Positions 24,957 to 37,487 of a stretch of DNA of 64,000 nt are shown here, piece by piece. Both the position numbers and the translations under genes were made by a program. How positions within the stretch are numbered: position 1 is the first letter of the stretch; every line of letters begins with the position of its first letter. Below the pieces are notes generated by a model. It saw nothing but the letters and a program-made list of their open reading frames with translations. It was not told where the DNA came from and made no database searches. This DNA comes from Erysipelotrichaceae bacterium (GTDB lineage: Bacteria; Bacillota_I; Bacilli_A; RFN20; DUOF01), in assembly GCA_015058985.1 (NCBI GenBank), contig SVBH01000001.1, forward strand, positions 124,001 to 188,000. The letters run 5' to 3'.

Positions 24957-25021
24957 AACATAATTTTCAATAAACCTAAAAAACATCTTTTTTATTTGTT
25001 AAGATATAAATGGTGATAGTT

Positions 25022-26383
25022 ATGGAAAGAAGCATAAAATTTGAAAATATACGACAACTTTTAAATAACTATAGAGAACAAAACAATTGGAGCATCCCTA
25101 CTCTTGCTAAAGAAATTGGTATGAATGATAGTAGTCTCCAAATTATTTTAAATGGAAAAAGAGATATTACTCTCGAAATGATTGATTTTGCATACAAAAC
25201 TTTTGGACCTAATATTTTATCAGAATTATCTTCAAATGAGAGAGAAGATAAGATGATAAAAGATTATTTAAACCCTATTACAAGAAATGAAGAAAGATTA
25301 TTAGTAAGAAGATATTGTCGAGAAAATAACACCACAATAGAACGAATTGCTAAAGATCACAATGTAACACCTTCTGTTCTATCAAGAATGATTACAAGAG
25401 AATTTTCAGGCAATGACACTTACTATTACATATTAAAAAATTTAGGGTTAAAAGAAGATTTAGAAGATCTATTAAAATCTAGAAACGCTCTTATCATCAA
25501 ACTGCAAAAAAATCTTTCTAATAGCAAAGAAAAAGAAATTTTCTTATATAACTCTTTAATTATGAAAAGAGTTCTAGCAGATAAAGATAATATGAATTTT
25601 TCTAGTTATAGATCTATTAAAACAAAAACACCTGCAATCAGAAATGAAATAGGAAATTTAGGGGCAACTTTAAGAAATGAAAATCAACTTCACTTTTCTG
25701 ATATGGCTAAATTATTGAATTGTTCTCCTTCCACTATTCAAAGCATGGAAGCAAGTAAAATTCCTTTTAATATAGATTATTATAATCTTTTAATTCAATA
25801 TGGTTATGAAAATCAATTAAACAATGAAATTGAAAAAATTAAAAATAAAGTCATGGAATTTAAAAATTACAAATCTCTTACTAAAGAAGAAAGAATAATG
25901 GCCAAAAGCCTTCAAAATTATCTCACAAAAAGAAAAATAGTTGCTAATAAACGTGGAGTCAAAGCAAAAAGTTTACTAAACGCTATCGAAGAAACAAAAA
26001 TAATTAGCGAATTAAGTAAAGTAAAACCATTAGAAACTATTTGTAAAGAGATTAATCTTCCAATAAGTTCTATTCACAGAATTCTTCAAGGAAAACAAAT
26101 AGCGGATGAAAAATTCTATAAGTACTTAATATCACAAGGCTATCAAAAAGAATTATTATCTTTATCTAACAGTAGAACAGAAAGATATCAAAAACTAAAT
26201 GATTTTATAGAAAACAATTTAGCGGTCTATTATAAAAACAAAAAAGAATCTCATCTATTAATAAAAACTCATCAATCAGATTTTTATGAAGCAGGAACTA
26301 CAAAAATCAAAGATTTGTTATCTTCTGAAGATTATATTTTCTACAAAAACTATCGTACATTAAGAAAATGTCTAATGAACTAA
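25022..26383 (+). CDS. Protein with four tandem helix-turn-helix modules, 453 aa
   Basis: The ATG at 25022 follows GGTGATAGTT. Four stretches have the size and pattern of XRE/Cro-type DNA-binding units: about 8-62 (TLAKEIGMNDSSLQIILNGK), 89-142 (RIAKDHNVTPSVLSRMI), 210-262 (DMAKLLNCSPSTIQSMEASK) and 325-375 (TICKEINLPISSIHRILQGK). Each is followed by a helix ending in a Y/F...LG/YG-like segment and a short linker. The remaining C-terminal 70 residues are unknown. No enzyme or sensor domain is visible. It might bind an array of DNA sites or serve as a nucleoid organiser. Confidence 0.65.
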   Translation: MERSIKFENIRQLLNNYREQNNWSIPTLAKEIGMNDSSLQIILNGKRDITLEMIDFAYKTFGPNILSELSSNEREDKMIKDYLNPITRNEERLLVRRYCRENNTTIERIAKDHNVTPSVLSRMITREFSGNDTYYYILKNLGLKEDLEDLLKSRNALIIKLQKNLSNSKEKEIFLYNSLIMKRVLADKDNMNFSSYRSIKTKTPAIRNEIGNLGATLRNENQLHFSDMAKLLNCSPSTIQSMEASKIPFNIDYYNLLIQYGYENQLNNEIEKIKNKVMEFKNYKSLTKEERIMAKSLQNYLTKRKIVANKRGVKAKSLLNAIEETKIISELSKVKPLETICKEINLPISSIHRILQGKQIADEKFYKYLISQGYQKELLSLSNSRTERYQKLNDFIENNLAVYYKNKKESHLLIKTHQSDFYEAGTTKIKDLLSSEDYIFYKNYRTLRKCLMN

Positions 26384-26409
26384 AAAGAGTCTAAATTCTA
26401 GACTCTTTT
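26383..26409. terminator. Bidirectional terminator between the HTH gene and mutL
   Basis: AAAAGAGTCTA, loop AATTC, TAGACTCTTTT. The mutL stop codon lies in the hairpin. Confidence 0.8.
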
Positions 26410-28200
26410 AAACATCTTTTCTAACTCATAAGCAGTTATCTTTACAATAGTAGGTCTACCATGAGCACAAGTAAAAGGATTATCGCATTCATCAAATAAT
26501 CTTTGCACCAAAACTTCCATCTCATATAAAGACAAAACTTTGTTGGCCTTTAAACTAGCCTTACATGCTAAGGTAGAAATCGCATGTTCTCTTAAAATAT
26601 TTAAATCTATTTTATTAGTAGATAAAATTTGTTCTATCATATTAACAGCATAAACTTTAATATCACTTTCTTTAGCCCAAATAGGGACAGAATTAATTCT
26701 GAAAGTATTTATTCCAAAAGGTTCTAAACATAGCCCTAAATCAGCTAAAATAGGCAAAAATTTATTTATTTGAATAGAACTAGAAGCGTCATATTCCAAA
26801 ACAATAGGAACCAACAAATCAATACTATCATGATTTTCTAAAATTAATTTAGAAAACTTTTCGTAATTAATCCTTTCCATCGCAGCATGTTGATCAATCA
26901 AATACATACCTTCCTCATCTTCTCCTACAATATAAGTACCATGAATTTGACCTATTATTCTTATATGTTTTTGATAAGGTTTATTTTCTGTCTTAATAAT
27001 ATTTTTAGTAGTTTCAATTTCTTTATTTACATTATCGCTTGTAAATTGAGAGGTTAATTCCAACTCACTCAACTTATCAACTTGTTTATTATACTCTACA
27101 GGAATTTCTTTAAGTTCTAAGGTTTCTTCTTTTCTAACTGAAGGATAATTAATATGTAAATAACCTTGAGAAACAATTTCTTTTGGTTTATTAACCACAC
27201 TAACTTCTGGTACTAAAAAACTTTTCTTTAAAGTATCTAAAATGCAACTAGAAACCAATTCCTTTAGTTGATCTTCCTTAGATAATCTAACTTCATTTTT
27301 ACTTGGATGAACATTAACATCCACTAAAGAAAGTTCACTTTCAATATTTAAAACCACAATAGGAAATCGATCACTAGGCAAATATGTTCGATAACTTTCT
27401 ATGATAGAGGTCATTACATTAGGCATTCTAACTGCTCTACCATTCAAAATAGTGATAATAGAATATCTATTTGGTTTACTTTCTTTAATAGAAGATATAT
27501 AACCACTTATTCTAAAATCAAAATTTTCTCCTTCAACACGAAGCATATTCTTTCCCACGCTAGTTCCATATAATAAAGCAATATTTTCTAATAGATTGCC
27601 ATTTCCAGAAGTAGTATAAGACAATCTGTCTTCATTAAATAAACTAAAAGAAATATGAGGATAAGATAAAGCTAATTTCAATATAGTTTCATTAATCACA
27701 GCCAGTTCAGTATAATCACTTTTCAAATGTTTTAACCTAGCAGGAGTATTATAAAACAAATCTTCAACACATATATAAGTCCCTTTTTTAGCAGAGCAAG
27801 GTTCAACCACTTTAAACTCTCCATCCTCTACAATAACTCTCGTTCCAACTTCTCCCATAGAAGTTTCTAGAGTTAACTTACTAACAGAACTGATTGAAGG
27901 TAAAGCTTCCCCTCTAAAACCTAAGCTACCAATTCTAAACAAATCATTTACATCACTAACTTTAGAAGTGGCATGCCTTTTAAAAGCCATCAAAGCATCT
28001 TCTTTACTCATACCTGTTCCATTATCTAAAACACTAATAAAAGTCTTACCAGCATTTTTGACTTTAATTTCAATCGAAGTTGCTTTCGCATCAATGGAAT
28101 TTTCTACTAACTCTTTAATAACACTCGCAGGCCTTTCAACAACTTCTCCTGCTGCAATCATATTAGCAAGTTCTGGCGTTAATTCTTTTATAATTCCCAT
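26398..28200 (-). CDS. mutL: DNA mismatch repair protein MutL
   Basis: A 600-aa protein. The N-terminal GHKL ATPase has ELVENSIDA (Glu34 region), DNGTGM and GSLGFRGEALPSI. The C-terminal domain carries the endonuclease motif DQHAAMERINYE (DQHA-x2-E-x4-E), with ACKASLKA and CAHGRPT also in place, so the nicking activity of Bacillus-type MutL should be intact. It normally sits right after mutS; here two HA-repeat genes and a terminator lie between. It has its own extended -10 promoter. The ATG is preceded by AGGTGATTGT. Confidence 0.95.
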   Translation of the reverse strand: MGIIKELTPELANMIAAGEVVERPASVIKELVENSIDAKATSIEIKVKNAGKTFISVLDNGTGMSKEDALMAFKRHATSKVSDVNDLFRIGSLGFRGEALPSISSVSKLTLETSMGEVGTRVIVEDGEFKVVEPCSAKKGTYICVEDLFYNTPARLKHLKSDYTELAVINETILKLALSYPHISFSLFNEDRLSYTTSGNGNLLENIALLYGTSVGKNMLRVEGENFDFRISGYISSIKESKPNRYSIITILNGRAVRMPNVMTSIIESYRTYLPSDRFPIVVLNIESELSLVDVNVHPSKNEVRLSKEDQLKELVSSCILDTLKKSFLVPEVSVVNKPKEIVSQGYLHINYPSVRKEETLELKEIPVEYNKQVDKLSELELTSQFTSDNVNKEIETTKNIIKTENKPYQKHIRIIGQIHGTYIVGEDEEGMYLIDQHAAMERINYEKFSKLILENHDSIDLLVPIVLEYDASSSIQINKFLPILADLGLCLEPFGINTFRINSVPIWAKESDIKVYAVNMIEQILSTNKIDLNILREHAISTLACKASLKANKVLSLYEMEVLVQRLFDECDNPFTCAHGRPTIVKITAYELEKMFKRV

Positions 28201-28252: not shown

Positions 28253-28278
28253 AAAAAAGAAGTAACTATATTACTTCT
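28253..28278 (-). terminator. Terminator of the minus-strand HA-repeat pair
   Basis: On the minus strand AGAAGTAA, loop TATAG, TTACTTCT, then six T. It separates the HA-repeat genes from mutL. Confidence 0.8.
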
Positions 28279-29953
28279 CTAATTTATTTTCATATTGTTT
28301 CATTAACAAATCCAAAGAAATTCCATATTTGGCTTCAATATTTTTACCACTCATAAAAAATATTTCATTAAGTCTTTTTCCTTCAATAATAGATAATCCA
28401 TTATTTTTTAAAAATTCACTTTTAGCATTAAGTTCTCTAATGGATTGTCTTAATAATAAGGTTTTATCATAACTTTTAATTTTAACGTTAATGTTATTAA
28501 TAAAATTTAAAACTTCTTGTTTGTTTTTGCTCGTATTCCAAACTACTCCAATATCAGCTAATCTTTGCTTTTTATCTAAATCATCACAAATATCATCTTT
28601 AAAATATGACTTTTGGCGTTTAAACCAATTATAAAGTTCTTCACCATTTTCATCATAATTAATTCCATCCGTGGTTCTAAAACCAATAGGAAGTTTTACA
28701 TTTCCATAGTAATTAAAATATTCTTTTACCAATCCATACATCTTATTCCATTTATATTCGTTAGCATCCCAAATCATATTAATGCTGTTTAGTTTATCAA
28801 CTCTTTCTTGGTTTAATCCACGATATTTATCTTTCTTATCCTTAAACAATACCCTTTGATTACTTATCCAATCTCCTAATCGATAACCATCTTCTTCTTT
28901 AATTATTCCATCAAAAGTATTAAAAGAATAAGGTATATCTAAATCCCCATAATAACTAAAATGTCTTTCAGCCAAAGAAAACATAAAATCCCATTGAGCA
29001 TCTTGCAAATTCCAAATCATTCCAATCTTATCCAATTTATCTTTACGATATTGATAAGTTTTAGATTCATTTCTTCTAAAAATAACAGATCGATTAGTGC
29101 ATATCCAATTGCCTAAATTAACACCATCATTATCATAATGAATTCCATCTTTTGTCTTAAAGTTATTAGGAACATTTAAATTTTTATAATGATTAAAATA
29201 CTTTTCTGCTAACAAATAAATTTCTTCCCAAGATGTATCACTTATATTCCAAATAATTCCTAATTTTTCTAATTTTGACTTTTGCTCATCAGTAATTCTA
29301 GAATACTGATAATTATCATTATTACGAGTTTTTTGAGTTTGTACCCAAGTTCCTAAGCTATAACCATTTTCACTATAATTAAATCCATCTAAAGTTTTAA
29401 AACTAATAGGAACATTCAAATGATGATTATGTTCATAATATTTACATGCTAAGTCATACATTAAATTCCAACGTATTTGATCAACACTCCAAACCATACC
29501 TATATTATCCAATAAAATCTTTCTATCTTCTTTTAGAATTCCTTTTTTGAAATGAGACCTATTATTTTGAATCCATACACCTAACTTATAACCTTTTTCA
29601 TCTTCATTAATACCATCAAACGTTTTAAATAAAGCAGGCATTTCTAAATGGCCATAATGATTATAATATTGAATCGCTAAGTTATAATATTCATTCCAAC
29701 CGATGCCTTTTGCATTTTCCCATATCATTCCAATTTTGTCTAATGCTTGGATTTTTTTCTCATTCAATTTAATATATTGAAAATTTGGATTTCCACTTCT
29801 ACAATATTTATTTGCCTTAATCCAAGCTCCTAAATATTCCCCATTTTCATCATAATTAATTCCATCAAATGTCCTAAATTTTCCAGGCATATCTAAATGA
29901 TGATAATGATTATAAAAATTAACTGCTAATTGATACTTTTCTTCCCACGTCAT
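28271..29953 (-). CDS. HA-repeat protein 1: six tandem Helicase-Associated-type repeats plus FFMS/AKYG module
   Basis: A 560-aa protein. The ATG at 29953 is chosen because AAGGAG lies 7 bases upstream; an earlier ATG at 29986 overlaps the previous gene and has no site. Six units of 70-80 residues follow one another, each with W-x3-Y-x-L-A at the front, then YYxHYGHLxxP, FKTxDGIxYDENG, LGxWIxxxR and a closing KLDxIGMIW. This is the pattern of the Helicase-Associated (HA, PF03457-like) domain, thought to bind nucleic acid. Here no helicase is attached. The last 60 residues (RELNAKSEFLKNNG, RLNEIFFMSGKNIEAKYG) are shared with the three sister proteins. Confidence 0.75.
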   Translation of the reverse strand: MTWEEKYQLAVNFYNHYHHLDMPGKFRTFDGINYDENGEYLGAWIKANKYCRSGNPNFQYIKLNEKKIQALDKIGMIWENAKGIGWNEYYNLAIQYYNHYGHLEMPALFKTFDGINEDEKGYKLGVWIQNNRSHFKKGILKEDRKILLDNIGMVWSVDQIRWNLMYDLACKYYEHNHHLNVPISFKTLDGFNYSENGYSLGTWVQTQKTRNNDNYQYSRITDEQKSKLEKLGIIWNISDTSWEEIYLLAEKYFNHYKNLNVPNNFKTKDGIHYDNDGVNLGNWICTNRSVIFRRNESKTYQYRKDKLDKIGMIWNLQDAQWDFMFSLAERHFSYYGDLDIPYSFNTFDGIIKEEDGYRLGDWISNQRVLFKDKKDKYRGLNQERVDKLNSINMIWDANEYKWNKMYGLVKEYFNYYGNVKLPIGFRTTDGINYDENGEELYNWFKRQKSYFKDDICDDLDKKQRLADIGVVWNTSKNKQEVLNFINNINVKIKSYDKTLLLRQSIRELNAKSEFLKNNGLSIIEGKRLNEIFFMSGKNIEAKYGISLDLLMKQYENKLEK

Positions 29954-29969
29954 AATTTTGCTCCTTATA

Positions 29970-31427
29970 TTATCTTTTTTTTCCATAAAATCTTATTAAA
30001 TCTTCTCTGCTTAAACCATATTTAGCTTTCAAATTCAAATCACTCATAAAAAAGAAAGGATTTAATTTATCATTGGTTATCAAATCCATGTTTCTTTCTT
30101 TCATATATTGAATCTTTGCTCGTAATTCCTTCTCAGAAATTCTAATCAAATCACTTTTAAAATAATCAAAACATATTCCATTTTGTTCACACAAATGTTT
30201 AACTTCTTTATAATTAGTACGAGTATTCCAAATCATCCCTATATTCTCTAACATCTTAATTTGTTCATTAGATATCAACTTACTATTTTGATAATGTCTT
30301 GTTTTTTGCTTTTTAATCCACTTTCCAAGTTCAAGACCTTTTTCATCATAGAAAACTCCATCATTTGTTTTAAAGCTTTCATCAATTAACAAATGTCGAT
30401 GAAATTCATAATATGATTTTGCTAGATTATAAAAACTTTTCCATTCAGGTGAATCACTTAACATAGGCATAAATTTACTAAACTTAAGTCTTTGATCATG
30501 GTTCATCCTATTATTTCTATAACGGGATTTTTGTTTTTCTACCCACGCATCCAAGAAAGTTCCATTTTTATCAAAATCAATTCCATTTATTGTTTTAATA
30601 TGAGGTAAATTTATATGTCCATATTTTTTGTAAAAATTATTTGCTGCATTATAACAACTATCCCATGTTGGCTTATATGGTAATCCAAATTTTTCTAATT
30701 TTTCAGCCATTTCTTTCGTTAGATACGAATGAATATTAGGATACTTTTTATTATCATTATATAGTGCAACTTGTGCGTGATACCACCTTCCAAGTTCAAA
30801 CCCATTTTCATCAAAAGTAACGCCATCATTTGTTTTAAAAGTAGTAGGGATGTTATAGTCTTTATAATGTTGTTTATAGGCTTCTGCTAATGCAAGTTTA
30901 CCTTCCCATCTTTTAATCGTTTCTCTTCTTTTTTCTTTAATAGATTGAAATTGAAAATTAGCAGTTATTCCAATTGCTCTAAGTTTCTCTATTTTGTTAA
31001 TTACATCTTGCTCAATGGAAGTTGATTTTATTTTCACAAATCTTCTTTGTAAAACAATCCAACCTCTTAAATGAACACCTTTTTCAGTTTTGTAATCTTC
31101 AGGAACTTCTAAATTACCATAAGTTTCTAAGTATTTTTTTGCTGCTTCATAGTTAGAACTCCAACTTTCCATTACTCGTCTTGCCAGTTTATTACCTGGT
31201 TTAACTCCTAGTTCTTTAAGTAAAGTTATTCTTCTTTGAACTTCCAAATCTTCACTATCTTGATAATCTTCCATAAACAATTGTTGTGCATTCAACCACT
31301 TTTTCAAATATACCCCACGATGGCTATATGAAAAACCATCCAAAGTCTTAAAATATAAATCTATCTTTAAATTTCCATTTTTTTCTTTATAATTACACAA
31401 CATTTTATACATTTGATTCCAATCCAT
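29970..31427 (-). CDS. HA-repeat protein 2: five repeats plus FFMS/AKYG module
   Basis: A 485-aa protein from the ATG at 31427, preceded by GGTGATTTAT; an upstream in-frame extension is hydrophobic by chance and has no ribosome site. Five HA-type units begin at WNQMYKML, WSSNYEAA, WEGKLALAEAY, WDSCYNAA and WKSFYNLA. Unit 2 lacks the DENG insertion (YKTEKGVHLRGW), which shows the units have diverged. The C-terminal module reads KELRAKIQYMKERN, then LNPFFFMSDLNLKAKYGLS. It is the first gene after the mutS terminator and 16 bases before HA-repeat protein 1. Confidence 0.75.
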   Translation of the reverse strand: MDWNQMYKMLCNYKEKNGNLKIDLYFKTLDGFSYSHRGVYLKKWLNAQQLFMEDYQDSEDLEVQRRITLLKELGVKPGNKLARRVMESWSSNYEAAKKYLETYGNLEVPEDYKTEKGVHLRGWIVLQRRFVKIKSTSIEQDVINKIEKLRAIGITANFQFQSIKEKRRETIKRWEGKLALAEAYKQHYKDYNIPTTFKTNDGVTFDENGFELGRWYHAQVALYNDNKKYPNIHSYLTKEMAEKLEKFGLPYKPTWDSCYNAANNFYKKYGHINLPHIKTINGIDFDKNGTFLDAWVEKQKSRYRNNRMNHDQRLKFSKFMPMLSDSPEWKSFYNLAKSYYEFHRHLLIDESFKTNDGVFYDEKGLELGKWIKKQKTRHYQNSKLISNEQIKMLENIGMIWNTRTNYKEVKHLCEQNGICFDYFKSDLIRISEKELRAKIQYMKERNMDLITNDKLNPFFFMSDLNLKAKYGLSREDLIRFYGKKR

Positions 31428-31520
31428 ATAAATCACCAATAAAACTATAAAATAAATTATTTTATATAACCATAAATTAACCAAAAGATGTGGAATGTTG
31501 CTTTTTTATCTATCTCTACA

Positions 31521-31555
31521 ACAAAAAAAGTAAGCACACTTTTGTGTACCTACTT
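31521..31555 (-). terminator. Terminator after mutS
   Basis: On the minus strand an imperfect hairpin (AAGTA.G.ACAC, loop AAAA, GTGT.C.TACTT), then seven T. It cuts mutS off from the HA-repeat genes and mutL. Confidence 0.6.
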
Positions 31556-34072
31556 TATTTTCTTTTTTAAATCATATAAAAAGTTTAATGCATCTAAAGG
31601 AGACATATTTAAAGGATCCACGGACTTAACATCTTCCACCCAGTTAGGTAAAGTTTCTTTTTCTTTAATGACATATTCAACTTTAGAATCAAATACTTTA
31701 TTAGTTTCAAGGCTTTCTAAAACCTCTTTTGCCCTATCAATCAAATCATTAGGTAAATGTGCCAATCTAGCAACATTAATACCATAAGATTTATTGGCAC
31801 AACCAGGTGCTATTTTATATAAGAAAGTAACCTTATCATCTTCTTCGTAAACTTTAACATGAACATTTTCGATGTTAGGTAACTTTTCACTTATCTTAGT
31901 TAGTTCATGATAATGAGTAGAGAATAAAGTTTTGGCTCTTACTTTTAAAGATAAATGCTCTACAATAGCTTGTGCTAAAGCCATTCCATCATAAGTAGAA
32001 GTTCCTCTTCCTATTTCATCAAAAATAATCAAAGAATTCTCTGTTGCATTTCTAATCGCATTGTTAGCTTCTAACATCTCAACCATGAATGTAGATTGAC
32101 CAGAAATTAAATCATCGCTTGCTCCTATACGCGTAAATATTTTATCAAAAACAGGTATAGATGCATAACTAGCAGGAACGAAACTTCCTATCTGAGCCAT
32201 AATTACAATAATTGCCAATTGTCTCATATAAGTAGATTTACCACCCATATTAGGTCCTGTGATTAATAGCAATGATTTGCTTTTGTCCATGAATACATCA
32301 TTGCTAACATATCCTTTTGTAACTAAGATCTTTTCAATAACAGGATGTCTTCCTTCTTTAATATCTACAATCCCTTCTTCATTAAATGAAGGACGTACAT
32401 AACGATTAGTAACCGCTACATCTGCAAGACCCCTTACACAGTCAATTAAAGAGATTGAATTTGCAAGCATTTGAATCGTAGTAGTTTCCTTTTTTACTTT
32501 TTCTCTTATCTCAACTAATAATTCATATTCAAGTTTAACAATCTTATCTTCAGCATTTAAAATCAATTCCTCTTTTTCCTTTAATTCCTGAGTAATAAAT
32601 CTTTCTGCTCCTACTAAAGTTTGCTTTCTTTCATATCCAAATTCTTCTTTAACTTGGTCTAAATATGATTTAGTAACTTCAATATAATATCCAAAGACTT
32701 TATTAAAACCAACTTTTAAAGTTTTAATTCCTGTTCTTTCCCTTTCTGCATTTTCCATATTAGAAATCCATTCTTTACCATTTTTACTAGCACTCTTTAT
32801 CTCATCTAATAAAACAGAATAGCCTTCTTTAATCATTCCTCCTTCTTTGGTACTTAAAGGAGGTTCATCAACAATTGCAGTTTCTAATAGTTCAACAATA
32901 TGAGGCATTTCATTAATTTTTCTAGCAATATTTATAAAAGCTTGCTCATTAGTATCAATTAATTTTTTCTTTATATTAGGAATTGCTTTCAAAGACTTTT
33001 TCAGTTGAATTAAATCTTTTGCATTGGCGCTACCATAACTAATTCTGGCCACCAATCTTTCGAGGTCATAAACGTCTTTCAAGCAATCCTCTATTTCTTT
33101 TCTTTCAATGTATCTTTTAGTAAAAGCTTCTACTAAATTCAATCTCTCATTAATCATTCTTAAATCAGATAGAGGTTTAACCAACCAATTCTTTAACATC
33201 CTAGCGCCCATGGCAGTTTTAGTTTTATCTAACAACCAAAGCAAAGAACCATAACGATCTGAACTTCTTACCGTTCTAGTTAATTCTAAATTAGTCCTTG
33301 TAAAATTATCCATTTGCAGATATGTAGAATTGACTAGGACTCTAGCATTTTTAATATAATCTAAATTTCTTTTTTGAGTATAAGTTAAATATGCTAATAA
33401 TCTTTTGAAAGTTCTAACTTGTCTAACATCTTTTATTTGATAACATTTATCTTCAAATTCCAAATTATCTTCAACATCTTCTTGATAGGAAAAAATCATT
33501 CTTCTTTTATCTTTCAAGTCTTTAATAATAGATTTATCAAAATAACTATTGATAACGATTTCTTTAGCTTCTAATGCATCAAGTTCGCTAACAAGTCTTG
33601 CATAATCATGCTCACAATTAATAATACCAGTTTCCCCAGTAGACATATCTGCAAAAGCAATTACAAAGAAATCGGCATAATCATCAACAGCCACTACATA
33701 GTTGTTTTTATTTTCTTCTAAACCAATATCAATTAAAGCACCTGGAGTAACAATTTGAACGACATCTCTTTTAACAATTTTACTTTGACCAGGTTCTTCA
33801 AGTTGTTCGCAGATTGCAACTTTATAACCTTTTTGAACCAATTTTTCAATATATCCTTTAACTGCGTGATGTGGAACTCCACACATAGGAACTCTTTCTT
33901 CTACACCAGCATCTTTACCCGTTAAAACTAACTCTAATTCCACAGATCCTATCTTAGCATCATCAAAAAATAACTCATAAAAATCCCCAACACGATAAAA
34001 TAAAATAACATCTTGGTAATCTTTTTTTATTTCTAAAAATTGCATTATCATTGGTGAATATTTTTTTTCCAC
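31550..34072 (-). CDS. mutS: DNA mismatch recognition protein MutS
   Basis: An 840-aa MutS1. It starts with GTG (34072) and the reading SPMIMQFLEIKKDYQD lines up with known N-termini. The mismatch-binding motif is GDFYELF (Phe/Glu), followed by the connector, lever and clamp domains. The ATPase has GPNMGGKST (606-614), GASDDLISGQSTFMVEM, DEIGRGTSTYDG (from Asp685) and STHYHEL. The C-terminal tail (DPLNMSPLDALNFLYDLKKK) resembles the tetramer or beta-clamp region. HA-repeat genes stand on both sides. An extended -10 lies about 26 bases upstream. Confidence 0.96.
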   Translation of the reverse strand: MEKKYSPMIMQFLEIKKDYQDVILFYRVGDFYELFFDDAKIGSVELELVLTGKDAGVEERVPMCGVPHHAVKGYIEKLVQKGYKVAICEQLEEPGQSKIVKRDVVQIVTPGALIDIGLEENKNNYVVAVDDYADFFVIAFADMSTGETGIINCEHDYARLVSELDALEAKEIVINSYFDKSIIKDLKDKRRMIFSYQEDVEDNLEFEDKCYQIKDVRQVRTFKRLLAYLTYTQKRNLDYIKNARVLVNSTYLQMDNFTRTNLELTRTVRSSDRYGSLLWLLDKTKTAMGARMLKNWLVKPLSDLRMINERLNLVEAFTKRYIERKEIEDCLKDVYDLERLVARISYGSANAKDLIQLKKSLKAIPNIKKKLIDTNEQAFINIARKINEMPHIVELLETAIVDEPPLSTKEGGMIKEGYSVLLDEIKSASKNGKEWISNMENAERERTGIKTLKVGFNKVFGYYIEVTKSYLDQVKEEFGYERKQTLVGAERFITQELKEKEELILNAEDKIVKLEYELLVEIREKVKKETTTIQMLANSISLIDCVRGLADVAVTNRYVRPSFNEEGIVDIKEGRHPVIEKILVTKGYVSNDVFMDKSKSLLLITGPNMGGKSTYMRQLAIIVIMAQIGSFVPASYASIPVFDKIFTRIGASDDLISGQSTFMVEMLEANNAIRNATENSLIIFDEIGRGTSTYDGMALAQAIVEHLSLKVRAKTLFSTHYHELTKISEKLPNIENVHVKVYEEDDKVTFLYKIAPGCANKSYGINVARLAHLPNDLIDRAKEVLESLETNKVFDSKVEYVIKEKETLPNWVEDVKSVDPLNMSPLDALNFLYDLKKKIK

Positions 34073-34097
34073 TTACAACCACATCCTAAACGAAAAT

Positions 34098-34106
34098 ATT
34101 ATACCA
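34098..34106 (-). promoter_or_regulatory. Extended -10 promoter of mutS
   Basis: On the minus strand TGGTATAAT; RNA would start near 34091, about 19 bases before the GTG. Confidence 0.55.
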
Positions 34107-34206
34107 TAATTGAATTATTTTTTCTTATTTTTTTGTTTTCCACATAAAAAGATTTCTTTAAATGCTTTCATTAACATTTATGTTAAACTTTACAAGGAGT
34201 GATTTT

Positions 34207-35694
34207 ATGAATATAAACGAATTACGTTGGGAAGAAAAATTTAAATTAGCTCGTAAATATTATAAAAAATATGGTCATTTAATCATGCCTTCACATTTTA
34301 TAACTTCAAACGGAACTACTTACAATAAAAATGGTATTAGATTAGGAGAATGGGTATCTAGGCAAAAAGCTATTTATAACCATTCAAAAGATAAAATGCC
34401 TATCAAACATATAAAAAAATTAGAATCAATTGGAATGGTTTGGGGTGAAAAGATAGAATCTGAAAATAGTCCATTAGCAAAAAAATGGAATGAAATGTAT
34501 CAACTAGCAATCAAATACAAAGAACATTACCAAGATAGCAATATTCCTATTGAATTCAAAACATTAAATGGAATTGATTTTGATGAAAATGGATTAAACT
34601 TAGGATATTGGTATCATCGAAATTTATCAACCTACAACAAATATTTAAAAGGATTAGAGTATCCTTTGTTCTTAAATGAAAATAGAATTCAAAAATTAGA
34701 ATCATTAATTTCTACTCTCTCAATGAGAGTAGAAATTATGAATAATAGAATTGAAATGTTATCTAATTTCAAAAAACATTATGGGCATTGTAATATTCCT
34801 TTAAGATTTAGAACCACTAATGGAATTGACTTTGATGAAAATGGATTTACATTAGGACTATGGATTAATGATATTCTAAAAAATAAAAAGAACATTTCAA
34901 AAGAACACAAAGAAAAAATAGAAAATCTTAATGTTAAAATTTTAACCAACCATGATAAAATTTTTGATACTTATTTCAGTTTAGCTCAAAACTTTTATAA
35001 ACATCATAAACACTTAAATATTCCTCAAAATTTCATAACCACAAACGGCTATGAATACGATGAAAAGGGAATAAAGCTTGGACTATGGCTTCATAAGAAA
35101 AGATCAAAATATTCTATGATGCTAAAAAACAACGAAGAAATACCTGCTAAGCATCAAGAAAAAATAACCTGCTTGCAATCAATTGGGCTAATCTTTAGCA
35201 TCAGTGATAAGAATTGGGATGAAATGTATCAATTAGCTAAAAACTTCTATGAAGAAAATGGGCACTTGCAAGTTACAGAAAATTTAATAACCTCTGATGG
35301 AATTCATTATGACTCTAAAGGTAAAAATTTAAGTTGTTGGATAAAAAGACAAAGAATTCGTTATTTTCAAAGAGAAGATGGAAATAAAACTTTAAATGAA
35401 AAACAAATTGATTTGTTAAACCAAATTGGTATGATATGGGATTATTTTGATAATTATCAAAAAACTTCAAAAATTTCTGAAAAATATAAATTATATCATA
35501 AAAGAAATTTATGCAAAATTAACGCAAGAGAATTACAAGCAAAAATAAGATTTATGAAAGCAAATAAAATTCCTCTTCTAATAAATGAAGAATTGAATGG
35601 CTTATTCTTTATGAGTAGTAAAAATATTCAAGCCAAATATGGAATAACATTAGAAGAACTTGTAAATACTTACACACCTAAAAAACAAAAATAA
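34207..35694 (+). CDS. HA-repeat protein 3: five repeats plus FFMS/AKYG module
   Basis: A 495-aa protein from the ATG at 34207 (AAGGAGTG upstream), divergent from mutS. Five HA-type units begin at WEEKFKLARKYY, WNEMYQLAIKY, a unit without the first Trp (RIEMLSNFKKHYGHCNIP), FDTYFSLAQNFY and WDEMYQLAKNFY. Units 2 and 3 share nearly the same NGIDFDENG block. The C-terminal module reads RELQAKIRFMKANKIP, then LNGLFFMSSKNIQAKYGIT. It is the first gene of a three-gene operon; the second HA gene starts 13 bases after its stop. Nucleic-acid binding is inferred from the HA family. Confidence 0.75.
   Translation: MNINELRWEEKFKLARKYYKKYGHLIMPSHFITSNGTTYNKNGIRLGEWVSRQKAIYNHSKDKMPIKHIKKLESIGMVWGEKIESENSPLAKKWNEMYQLAIKYKEHYQDSNIPIEFKTLNGIDFDENGLNLGYWYHRNLSTYNKYLKGLEYPLFLNENRIQKLESLISTLSMRVEIMNNRIEMLSNFKKHYGHCNIPLRFRTTNGIDFDENGFTLGLWINDILKNKKNISKEHKEKIENLNVKILTNHDKIFDTYFSLAQNFYKHHKHLNIPQNFITTNGYEYDEKGIKLGLWLHKKRSKYSMMLKNNEEIPAKHQEKITCLQSIGLIFSISDKNWDEMYQLAKNFYEENGHLQVTENLITSDGIHYDSKGKNLSCWIKRQRIRYFQREDGNKTLNEKQIDLLNQIGMIWDYFDNYQKTSKISEKYKLYHKRNLCKINARELQAKIRFMKANKIPLLINEELNGLFFMSSKNIQAKYGITLEELVNTYTPKKQK
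34558..34589 (+). repeat. 32-nt direct repeat, copy 1
   Basis: These 32 bases match 36038-36069 without a change. Both copies code for the K-T-L-N-G-I-D-F-D-E part of an HA-type unit, in HA-repeat proteins 3 and 4. Confidence 0.8.
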
Positions 35695-35707
35695 AGGAGG
35701 AAATAAT

Positions 35708-36661
35708 ATGGGTTGGCATGACAAATACGCATTAGCAGAACAATTCTATCTTCACTATGGACACTGCTGTATACCTTTAAAATTTAAAACTTTCGATGGC
35801 ATTAATTATGATGAAAATGGAATAAAATTAGGTTCTTGGCTTGAAAAACAAGGCTGCGCATATAGAGATACACTTGCAGGTAAACCTACAGCGAGAATTA
35901 TGAATGAAGAAAGGATAAAACTTTTGGAAGCTATCGAAGCTCCTTTTTCAAAAAGAGCTTACAACTGGTTTCAAACTTTTGAAATCGCTAAAAGATTTTA
36001 TGATTACCATGGTCATTCAATATTTCCTAAACATTTTAAAACATTAAATGGAATTGATTTTGATGAAAAGGGACCTAATTTATACACTTGGTCAATGATT
36101 CAAGGAAAAAAAATTAGACATTCAATTGATAAATTAACAGAAGAACAAATAGAAGCGCTAAAAAGCATTCAATTTAAGTTTCCTAATTCAAACGCTAGCA
36201 GAACTTGGGAATACAATTATTCCCTTGCACAATCATTCTATCAAGAAAATTTTCATTTAAATGTCCCTTATGAATACATGACACCAAACGAAGAAAAACT
36301 TGGAAGTTGGATTGACACCCAAAGAAATCATCAAAAAGAACTAAATTCTTATCAGAAAGAAAAATTAGATAATCTTTCTATGATTTGGTCTTTACATGAT
36401 AACAACCATGAAATAAACACACTGTTTGAATTATATGGCATTAAAAAATTTCTTAATAAAAATCAATTAAAACAATTAAAAAATTATCCTGCAAAAGAAG
36501 TTGAAGTTAAGTTATCTTATCTAGTAAAAAATGGACTACCTGTTATTAAAGATGAAAAGATAAATGAGATATTTTTCATGAGTAACTTAAATGTCGAAGC
36601 CAAATATGGGTTGCGCATTAAAGAATTAGTAACTAAACAATACATAAATAAGGAGAAATAA
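35708..36661 (+). CDS. HA-repeat protein 4: three repeats plus FFMS/AKYG module
   Basis: The shortest of the four, 317 aa. Three units begin at WHDKYALAEQFY, WFQTFEIAKRFY and WEYNYSLAQSFY. The third lacks the DG...DENG segment (YMTPNEEKLGSW). The C-terminal module is KEVEVKLSYLVKNGLP, then INEIFFMSNLNVEAKYGLR. GGAGGAAATAAT precedes the ATG. It lies 13 bases after HA-repeat protein 3 and 2 bases before the 99-aa protein, so all three are one operon. The repeat number (6, 5, 5, 3) varies among the sisters, as expected for a family that grows and shrinks by repeat recombination. Confidence 0.75.
   Translation: MGWHDKYALAEQFYLHYGHCCIPLKFKTFDGINYDENGIKLGSWLEKQGCAYRDTLAGKPTARIMNEERIKLLEAIEAPFSKRAYNWFQTFEIAKRFYDYHGHSIFPKHFKTLNGIDFDEKGPNLYTWSMIQGKKIRHSIDKLTEEQIEALKSIQFKFPNSNASRTWEYNYSLAQSFYQENFHLNVPYEYMTPNEEKLGSWIDTQRNHQKELNSYQKEKLDNLSMIWSLHDNNHEINTLFELYGIKKFLNKNQLKQLKNYPAKEVEVKLSYLVKNGLPVIKDEKINEIFFMSNLNVEAKYGLRIKELVTKQYINKEK
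36038..36069 (+). repeat. 32-nt direct repeat, copy 2
   Basis: Exact match to 34558-34589, about 1.48 kb apart in the same orientation. Confidence 0.8.
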
Positions 36662-36663
36662 CT

Positions 36664-36963
36664 ATGTTTATTAGAAAATATGTCAGTGATTTCACTTATG
36701 AAATGCTTAAAGAAAATTATTCAAAAGAATATTTAGATAGTATTGATGAATCAAATTTTGCCCTTATTTACAACATCTTAAAAGGATTTAAATTTTATTT
36801 TATGGATGATGTCATTTTAAAATATTTAGATATCTTTGAAATGGATCCAGATGACGTTATTGAAGGTGTTTATCGCCTAAAAGAAAAATTAGGTGATAAG
36901 TTTGTTTATTATATTGGAAATGATTTAAGATACTTAGAAGAAATATTAAAAGTAGATGAATAA
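36664..36963 (+). CDS. Small acidic protein, 99 aa, unknown
   Basis: No family recognised. It is mostly helical, with two Tyr/Phe-rich helices (SDFTYEMLKENYSKEYLD, FALIYNILKGFKFYFMDD) and an acidic C-terminal half (MDPDDVIEGVYRLKEKLG). No membrane segment and no Cys. AAGGAG lies 8 bases before the ATG. It begins 2 bases after HA-repeat protein 4, so it is translated from the same message. It could be a partner of the HA-repeat proteins or a resident of the older cotE-mutS gap. Confidence 0.6.
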   Translation: MFIRKYVSDFTYEMLKENYSKEYLDSIDESNFALIYNILKGFKFYFMDDVILKYLDIFEMDPDDVIEGVYRLKEKLGDKFVYYIGNDLRYLEEILKVDE

Positions 36964-36976
36964 CCATCTACTTTTT
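36948..36976. terminator. Bidirectional terminator
   Basis: AAAAGTAGATG facing CATCTACTTTT around the stop codon of the 99-aa gene, with T-runs on both strands; it serves the plus-strand HA operon and cotE. Confidence 0.8.
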
Positions 36977-37487
36977 ATTTGTTTATATAATCAACGTTGA
37001 CGGAGTTCTCAATCTCATCTTCCAAACTCCATTCATCTTCATCTAATTTACTAACTTGAATTTTAAGTTTAGTTTCACCAATTACATCTAAAGCAAAATC
37101 TTTCTCTACAGTTAAATAAATCTCATTTCCTTTTATTTGTAATTGAGTACATGTAGGATACTTTAAACAAAACGCTTTTAATTCACTTTGTGGTTTAATA
37201 GTTTCTCCTTGCTTCATTTTTAAAACTATCTCTTCTTCATATTCCTGTTTAGACTTAAACAATTCGGTCTGTGTATCTTCATCATAAGCATACCAAATAT
37301 TTACATCATAACTTCCTTTTATATAAGTCTTTTCATCCTTAAAAACTGGAGTGAACTCATGATTAATAATCCAACAGCCTAAACCTTTACTTAGATTTTT
37401 ATCAACTTTGAAAGTGAAATCTTGATTATCTTTTTTCTTACCTTTTCCTACAACTGCTTTTGTTACTATTTCTCTATATACCGACAT
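36975..37487 (-). CDS. cotE: Outer spore coat morphogenetic protein CotE
   Basis: A 170-aa protein. The opening SVYREIVTKAVVGKGKKKD matches the CotE N-terminus closely, followed by LGCWIINHEF, GSYDVNIWYAYDEDTQTE and VEKDFALDVIGETKLKIQV, all CotE landmarks. CotE directs assembly of the outer coat around SpoIVA-coated forespores. The acidic C-terminal tail is shorter than in B. subtilis. The position next to mutS is conserved with B. subtilis, apart from the inserted HA operon. A sigma-E-type promoter precedes it. This is the clearest sign of endospore formation in the window. Confidence 0.93.
   Translation of the reverse strand: MSVYREIVTKAVVGKGKKKDNQDFTFKVDKNLSKGLGCWIINHEFTPVFKDEKTYIKGSYDVNIWYAYDEDTQTELFKSKQEYEEEIVLKMKQGETIKPQSELKAFCLKYPTCTQLQIKGNEIYLTVEKDFALDVIGETKLKIQVSKLDEDEWSLEDEIENSVNVDYINK

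What the first reader, a model, noticed from the sequence alone, without database searches (positions are those of the whole stretch)
28271..36963. Four HA-repeat proteins bracket mutS inside a conserved cotE-mutS-mutL block
Seen: four genes (28271-29953, 29970-31427, 34207-35694, 35708-36661) encode 6, 5, 5 and 3 tandem units of the form W-Y-LA-YY-GHL-P-FKT-DG-YDENG-LG-W-Q/R...IGMIW. Two lie between mutS and mutL, two are divergent on the other side of mutS. Known: this pattern is that of the Helicase-Associated domain, normally attached to DEAD/DEAH helicases. mutS and mutL are adjacent and preceded by cotE in B. subtilis. Inferred: stand-alone HA arrays form a nucleic-acid-binding system placed in the mismatch repair locus, perhaps defence, repair modulation or gene transfer control.
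Basis: partly seen in the sequence, partly recalled or inferred. Interest (0 to 1): 0.8.

Follow-up and report, generated by a model that had tools for sequence, protein, structure and literature searches.

The report
Detached HA-repeat arrays with hypervariable reading helix
Beside a DNA-repair gene this uncultured bacterium carries repeat proteins that look like helicase DNA-reading arms without the helicase; in such arrays the same seven residues per repeat vary, as in zinc fingers, which suggests an untested modular code for reading nucleic acids and no link to mismatch repair.

Summary
In detail: four genes with 6, 5, 5 and 3 PF03457 (HA) units flank mutS. The reading does not: only this genome of 279 in its order has HA genes, a fifth copy sits beside pnp, relatives' mutS-mutL sites are empty or hold an unrelated gene, and in 32 relatives' loci mutS never appears and mutL once, about 5 kb away.

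The proteins share an unreported C-terminal domain (CTD). In another order of the same class the same HA-CTD half is fused to an SF2 (ResIII-type) helicase and followed by a small acidic gene, which is present in the window after HA4 (36664-36963). The window set is thus a helicase-less version of a recurring [array]-CTD + small-protein module.

Main new result: in recently amplified HA arrays the same seven columns vary (22, 23, 41, 44, 45, 48, 49 of 71). Five lie at i, i+3, i+4, i+7, i+8, on one face of the unit's second helix. The same columns stand out in the window's own units (p = 2e-5) and in arrays from four phyla (p = 5e-8). They vary within arrays nearly as much as between arrays, unlike other variable columns. 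Relatives fuse HA arrays to sigma-70 factors or HTH domains. I infer modular sequence-specific DNA binding (untested; RNA not excluded), without mismatch-repair role.

The parts
28271..29986 (-). HA1: six HA units + C-terminal domain (start at 29986 or 29953)
   Evidence: PF03457 3e-70, 6 stretches; CTD at 28274-28540
29970..31427 (-). HA2: five HA units + CTD; overlaps HA1 start
   Evidence: PF03457 7.5e-51, 5 stretches; CTD at 29973-30230
34207..35694 (+). HA3: five HA units + CTD; AAGGAG ribosome site before ATG 34207
   Evidence: PF03457 1.7e-58; CTD 35437-35691; sequence
35708..36661 (+). HA4: three HA units + CTD
   Evidence: PF03457 2.4e-33; CTD 36386-36658; AF2 model mean pLDDT 67, helices alpha1-loop-alpha2-alpha3 per unit
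36664..36963 (+). SMALL: 99-aa acidic (pI 4.5) partner gene, the only copy in the genome
   Evidence: homologous to the ORF that directly follows CTD genes in relatives (37-41% identity to L082/L083; single copy; pI)
28544..29950 (-). HA1 repeat array (window units share the seven variable columns 22,23,41,44,45,48,49)
31550..34072 (-). mutS (neighbour, not part of the module)
   Evidence: Pfam MutS_I-V
26398..28200 (-). mutL (neighbour, not part of the module)
   Evidence: Pfam MutL_C etc.
36975..37487 (-). cotE (neighbour)
   Evidence: PF10628 4.5e-42
31527..31556 (-). terminator-like hairpin at the mutS stop codon, between mutS and HA2
   Evidence: consensus match only; 5 found in the region against 2.7 expected
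36948..36975 (.). terminator-like hairpin (both strands) between SMALL and cotE
   Evidence: consensus match only

Best explanation
The four genes, with a fifth elsewhere in the genome, encode stand-alone arrays of HA repeats, each ending in the same CTD. Shown: they correspond to the C-terminal half of a helicase-HA-CTD protein found in another order of the same class, without the helicase, and that protein and HA4 are both followed by the same kind of small acidic gene. Shown: within arrays, seven positions per repeat are hypervariable, five of them spaced to lie on one face of the unit's second helix. Inferred: that face reads bases, so an array is a modular, probably DNA-binding, sequence reader in the manner of C2H2 zinc-finger or TALE arrays. 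Inferred: the CTD with the small acidic protein is the constant effector or assembly end, and in relatives the same arrays deliver a helicase or a sigma factor. In the window lineage the genes act as helicase-free DNA-binding adaptors or regulators, settled at mutS by insertion, with no specific mismatch-repair role.
For: (1) HA identity. (2) Shared CTD: 13 invariant columns among the five own proteins; in relatives it ends helicase-HA proteins (L082, L083, L177, L179, L180, L184). (3) Querying the own genome with the 1089-aa helicase-HA-CTD protein matches only residues 547-1087, in all five genes at 33-40% identity; nothing matches the helicase part. (4) SMALL was found in 17 of 26 relatives' loci collected for the CTD (four of these served to build the profile), normally 41 nt of overlap to 8 nt of gap after a CTD gene, pI 4.1-4.9. 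L181 has three HA-CTD genes in a row, then SMALL, like window HA3-HA4-SMALL. (5) Hypervariability: on the eight helicase-HA-type arrays alone the top seven columns are exactly 22,23,41,44,45,48,49. In the own 24 units they rank 2,7,1,6,12,5,4 of 70 (p 1.8e-5); in sigma-HA arrays p 6e-5; in 11 arrays from Actinomycetota, Pseudomonadota, Bacteroidota and Bacillota ranks 9,1,8,2,6,3,5 of 64, p 4.8e-8. Within/between-array variability is 0.75-0.92 at these columns against 0.05-0.67 at the 32 other variable columns, p 6.5e-8. dN/dS in the helicase-HA arrays is 1.39 there against 0.20 elsewhere. Acidic residues there are 2% against 16%. (6) DNA context: fusions to sigma-70 and HTH_3, and to ResIII-type SF2 helicases. 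(7) Precedent: tandem-repeat proteins from gut Bacillota MAGs bind DNA sequence-specifically (pTERF; PMC11417379).
Against: No binding was measured; RNA or protein targets are not excluded. In the window's own arrays the acidic depletion is not significant (9.6 against 13.5%, p 0.18), and dN/dS there is near saturation. The AF2 model is of moderate confidence (pLDDT 67) and Foldseek finds no fold relative. The genome is about 87% complete, so an unassembled helicase gene cannot be excluded. HA1-HA2 and HA5 have no SMALL beside them. The unit pairs behind dN/dS are not independent.
Confidence: 0.55

Rival explanations
1. The arrays read RNA rather than DNA, working with RNA turnover enzymes.
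For: Own HA5 lies next to pnp; a CTD+SMALL pair in L186 also follows rpsO-pnp; RNase J is the neighbour in L083 and L179. Many SF2 helicases act on RNA.
Against: Fusions to sigma-70 factors and HTH domains point to DNA; most other neighbours have nothing to do with RNA decay; the neighbour pattern was noticed after the fact and two cases may share ancestry.
Confidence: 0.18
2. The hypervariable face binds proteins, for example phage or competitor proteins, in a recognition or defence role.
For: Fast diversification between related genomes at the seven positions while the frame stays about 85% identical (L179 against L180) looks like an arms race.
Against: Residues at the face are polar or basic and nearly free of acids in the amplified arrays, as expected for nucleic acid; no PADLOC hit; loci are not in defence islands.
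Confidence: 0.12
3. One reading: a system tied to mismatch repair, modulating MutS/MutL.
For: Position on both sides of mutS, and HA2-HA1 co-oriented between mutS and mutL.
Against: No mutS and only one distant mutL in 32 relatives' loci; fifth copy at pnp; two of the three family relatives have mutS-mutL adjacent and all three lack HA; terminator-like hairpin at the mutS stop.
Confidence: 0.05
4. Decaying remnants of a transferred helicase-HA operon without function.
For: Helicase half missing; only genome of its order with HA; own units strongly diverged (29-41% mean identity).
Against: Five long intact frames; outside the seven columns units show dN/dS 0.58; CTD and SMALL kept; L181 in another order has the same helicase-free layout.
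Confidence: 0.1

Closest known systems
Helicase associated domain PF03457 (DEAD/DEAH helicases and 'helicase associated domain-containing proteins' of plasmids)
   Same: Nearly all units exceed the Pfam cut-off; stand-alone HA arrays are also annotated elsewhere, e.g. 620 aa with eight HA units on an M. intracellulare plasmid and a 285-aa protein in Arthrobacter.
   Different: Window proteins end in a CTD not in Pfam, NCBIfam or PHROGs and partner with SMALL; no helicase half found in the genome.
C2H2 zinc-finger and TALE repeat arrays
   Same: Works like: tandem units, conserved frame, few hypervariable positions diversifying within arrays.
   Different: No sequence relation was sought or found; unit of 60-75 aa with three helices, about seven variable positions, no code known.
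pTERF, STAR and MOON DNA-binding tandem repeat proteins (Hu et al. 2024, PMC11417379)
   Same: Tandem-repeat proteins with variable positions; pTERF also comes from gut Bacillota MAGs.
   Different: HA repeats are not mentioned in that paper's main text; its supplements were not readable here.

Membership tests
PF03457 Helicase associated domain | Profile match over the curated cut-off | tested here: met
   18 of 19 window units over the cut-off singly; whole proteins 115-233 bits against 28.4
DEAD/DEAH helicase with HA domains | SF2 helicase core in the same protein or nearby | tested here: not met
   no helicase Pfam hit in HA1-HA4; helicase half of the G560 protein has no match in the genome, about 87% complete
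[array]-CTD + SMALL module (defined here) | C-terminal CTD followed directly by SMALL | tested here: met
   HA4-CTD then SMALL 3 nt later; HA1, HA2, HA5 have the CTD but no SMALL beside them
Modular nucleic-acid-reading repeat arrays (ZF/TALE-like) | Same few positions hypervariable within arrays | tested here: met
Modular nucleic-acid-reading repeat arrays (ZF/TALE-like) | Sequence-specific binding set by those positions | not testable with these tools
   needs SELEX/EMSA and residue swaps
Known anti-phage defence systems | Match to a PADLOC model | tested here: not met
   no hits for HA1-HA4; SMALL only a chance-level Cas1d hit, E 0.016
Mismatch-repair accessory system | Association with mutS/mutL across relatives | tested here: not met

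The most novel reading that the evidence does not exclude
HA repeats (PF03457) are a further class of modular, code-based DNA-reading repeat: seven residues, five of them on helix 2, set each unit's sequence preference, and bacteria attach such arrays to helicases, sigma-70 factors, HTH domains or, as in the window, a CTD that works with a small acidic partner.
Probability: 0.45. Interest if true: 0.85.

Novelty: new variant of a known kind. Interest (0 to 1): 0.6.

Why it matters
The HA domain is annotated in helicases and plasmid proteins of several phyla with no stated function, and I found no paper on it in the library searched. A seven-position hypervariable face that recurs across phyla turns 'what does HA do' into one experiment: determine the motif of a few arrays and swap the residues. 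If it binds DNA by a code, it would be a further natural programmable DNA reader, and the sigma-HA fusions would imply sigma factors steered by arrays.

Tried and rejected
Mismatch-repair link: rejected. Phage origin: no tblastn match in phage records, no CTD relative in IMG/VR, no PHROG for HA1 or SMALL. Defence: no PADLOC model. Mobile element with flanking repeats: the repeat search at the locus gave essentially HA/CTD coding repeats and chance-level short ones. PDB sequence search of HA3: none; of the CTD profile: nothing below E 0.16. Foldseek of the HA4 model: nothing. SMALL fold from a single sequence: poor, pLDDT 60. CTD against SMALL profile comparison: weak, 32% probability; an mTERF-like look of CTD and SMALL remains an impression. 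Single origin of the five own genes: the tree does not resolve it (2 changes, one origin not rejected). Literature searches on the HA domain found nothing relevant. 'Just exposed surface' as the cause of variability: rejected by the within/between control.

Full report
OBSERVATION. Searches confirm four ORFs with 6, 5, 5 and 3 PF03457 units at the stated places around an intact mutS, with mutL and cotE outside them (cotE: PF10628). One search finds 24 HA units in the genome: 19 in the window and five in one more gene on another contig (L027 11625-13187), which lies directly downstream of pnp. The window genes pack tightly: HA2 and HA1 overlap, HA3-HA4 are about 13 nt apart, HA4-SMALL 2-3 nt. 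A terminator-like hairpin lies at the mutS stop, so joint transcription of mutS and HA2 is doubtful (consensus only).

DISTRIBUTION. PF03457 occurs in no other of 279 genomes of the order, in 9 of 395 sampled from the class (the own genome plus one other family, f17) and 2 of 392 sampled from the phylum. The three family relatives (59% MutS identity) lack HA. Their mutS-mutL spacing is about 15 nt (L106) and 18 nt (L107), or holds an unrelated 208-aa gene (L105), and none has cotE there. The HA genes are therefore best read as gained in this lineage. I do not know the organism's name.

PARTS. All five proteins share a C-terminal domain of about 88 residues with 13 invariant columns. A profile of it finds five copies in the own genome and relatives in f17 (36 of 243 genomes). 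Fetched loci show the architecture: SF2 helicase (ResIII) + 5-7 HA units + CTD in L082, L083, L177, L179, L180, L184 and a split version in L185; HA + CTD alone in L181 (three genes in a row), L090, L182, L183, L188, L189, L194; and CTD on other helical repeats or short proteins in L091-L093, L186, L187, L191-L193, L195, L196. SMALL was found in 17 of 26 of these loci, normally from 41 nt of overlap to 8 nt of gap after a CTD gene, always acidic. Five SMALL sequences, the window's and four of these, built the profile. In the window it follows HA4 and is single copy. Querying the own genome with the whole helicase-HA-CTD protein returns only the HA-CTD half, for all five genes. The window thus holds a helicase-less edition of a recurring module. 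Several helicase operons also have a small upstream ORF (for example L082 10860-11114, L083 13068-13328); I did not search for it in the own genome.

CONTEXT TEST. Around 32 relatives' loci (350 kb) MutS never occurs and MutL once, about 5 kb from a CTD gene without HA. Neighbours are mixed core genes.

HYPERVARIABLE FACE. In recently amplified arrays (units 67-86% identical) variation concentrates in seven columns of the 71-column unit: IP-xx-F, LG-x-W, WI-xx-QR, QR-xx. Columns 41/44/45/48/49 have helix-face spacing and in the HA4 model fall on helix 2 in units 1 and 3, with 49 at its edge in unit 3 (moderate confidence). Chosen on the eight helicase-HA-type arrays of f17 (one of them, L178, is cut at its contig end, so its helicase part is not seen), the same columns stand out in independent sets: the window's and HA5's 24 units (p 1.8e-5), G460 sigma-HA arrays (6e-5), and 11 arrays from nine organisms of four phyla (4.8e-8). 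Control: many other columns differ between arrays, but only these seven vary within arrays nearly as much as between them (0.75-0.92 against at most 0.67, no overlap), so general surface exposure does not explain it. dN/dS at the seven is 1.39 pooled in the helicase-HA arrays (0.7-3.4 singly) against 0.2 elsewhere (pairs not independent). Residues there are mostly K, R, N, T, Q, S, Y; acidic residues 2.2 against 15.6%. In the window units the acid depletion is not significant. Related genomes (L179, L180, same genus) keep the frame and change the seven.

WHY DNA. In relatives the same arrays follow sigma-70 factors (regions 1.2-4) that exist beside a separate RpoD-sized sigma factor of about 370 aa, ResIII-type helicases, or an HTH_3 domain in a Bacteroidota species. 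All are DNA-directed partners. This is inference from fusion; RNA remains possible because of neighbours pnp and RNase J.

MECHANISM. Most likely: the array reads a sequence, one unit per few bases (unit-to-base ratio unknown); the CTD with SMALL is the constant end, acting as docking or regulator; helicase or sigma moieties are optional effectors. The window's helicase-free proteins would act as site-specific DNA-binding adaptors or regulators. Shown: anatomy, homology, hypervariability. Inferred: binding, DNA as the target, the role of CTD-SMALL.

KNOWN AND NEW. HA and stand-alone HA arrays are known to databases. DNA-binding bacterial repeat proteins, including pTERF of gut Bacillota, are published (PMC11417379). 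The CTD and SMALL families have no Pfam, NCBIfam or PHROG model that I could match, and I found no report of a hypervariable code in HA. Hence 'new variant of a known kind'.

Noticed in passing
L086 9585-12353 (G513); L085 7118-11365 (G460); L088 7976-9163 (G489): Sigma-70 factors fused to tandem HA arrays: regions 1.2-4 + 7 HA (923 aa), regions 1.2-4 + at least 12 HA (over 1416 aa, runs off the contig), and a 396-aa sigma with 2 HA. These genomes also carry a separate sigma factor of about 370 aa.
   Followed up: partly
L084 6505-12967 and L085 (G460): Giant HA arrays: 17 units in one 1386-aa protein, 8 in the next; units about 68% identical.
   Followed up: partly
L187 4763-6838, L091 3604-4746 (28-aa LEEIQKIIQSPEFKEHPELFTSxTLAHAK repeats); L193 4760-6148 (LLTPTIW repeats): The same CTD (and usually SMALL) is attached to other short helical repeat arrays; in L187 the residue before TLAHAK varies between near-identical repeats, reminiscent of a TALE variable residue or pTERF.
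   Followed up: no
L027 11625-15417 and L186 1319-4750: pnp is followed by a CTD gene in two different orders (HA5 in the own genome; CTD+SMALL after rpsO-pnp in G639); RNase J follows SMALL in L083 and L179.
   Followed up: no
L105 3281-3904: In relative G001 an unrelated 208-aa gene without Pfam or NCBIfam match sits between mutS and mutL, so this junction took up genes more than once.
   Followed up: no
L025 7961-12266 (Puteibacter): Two HTH+HA proteins directly downstream of a reverse transcriptase (RVT_1, 1e-25) gene.
   Followed up: no
L137 4226-7375 (G601): 1050-aa second sigma-70 factor with a long C-terminal tail carrying YSKEEI... repeats but no HA.
   Followed up: no
L027 9767-11605 and 17905-19506: Two large uncharacterised proteins near HA5 with HEGTH and HETNH motifs (HExxH, metallopeptidase-like); no Pfam match for the first, the second was not scanned.
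   Followed up: no
window 25010-26383: 457-aa protein with several HTH-like stretches, convergent with mutL.
   Followed up: no
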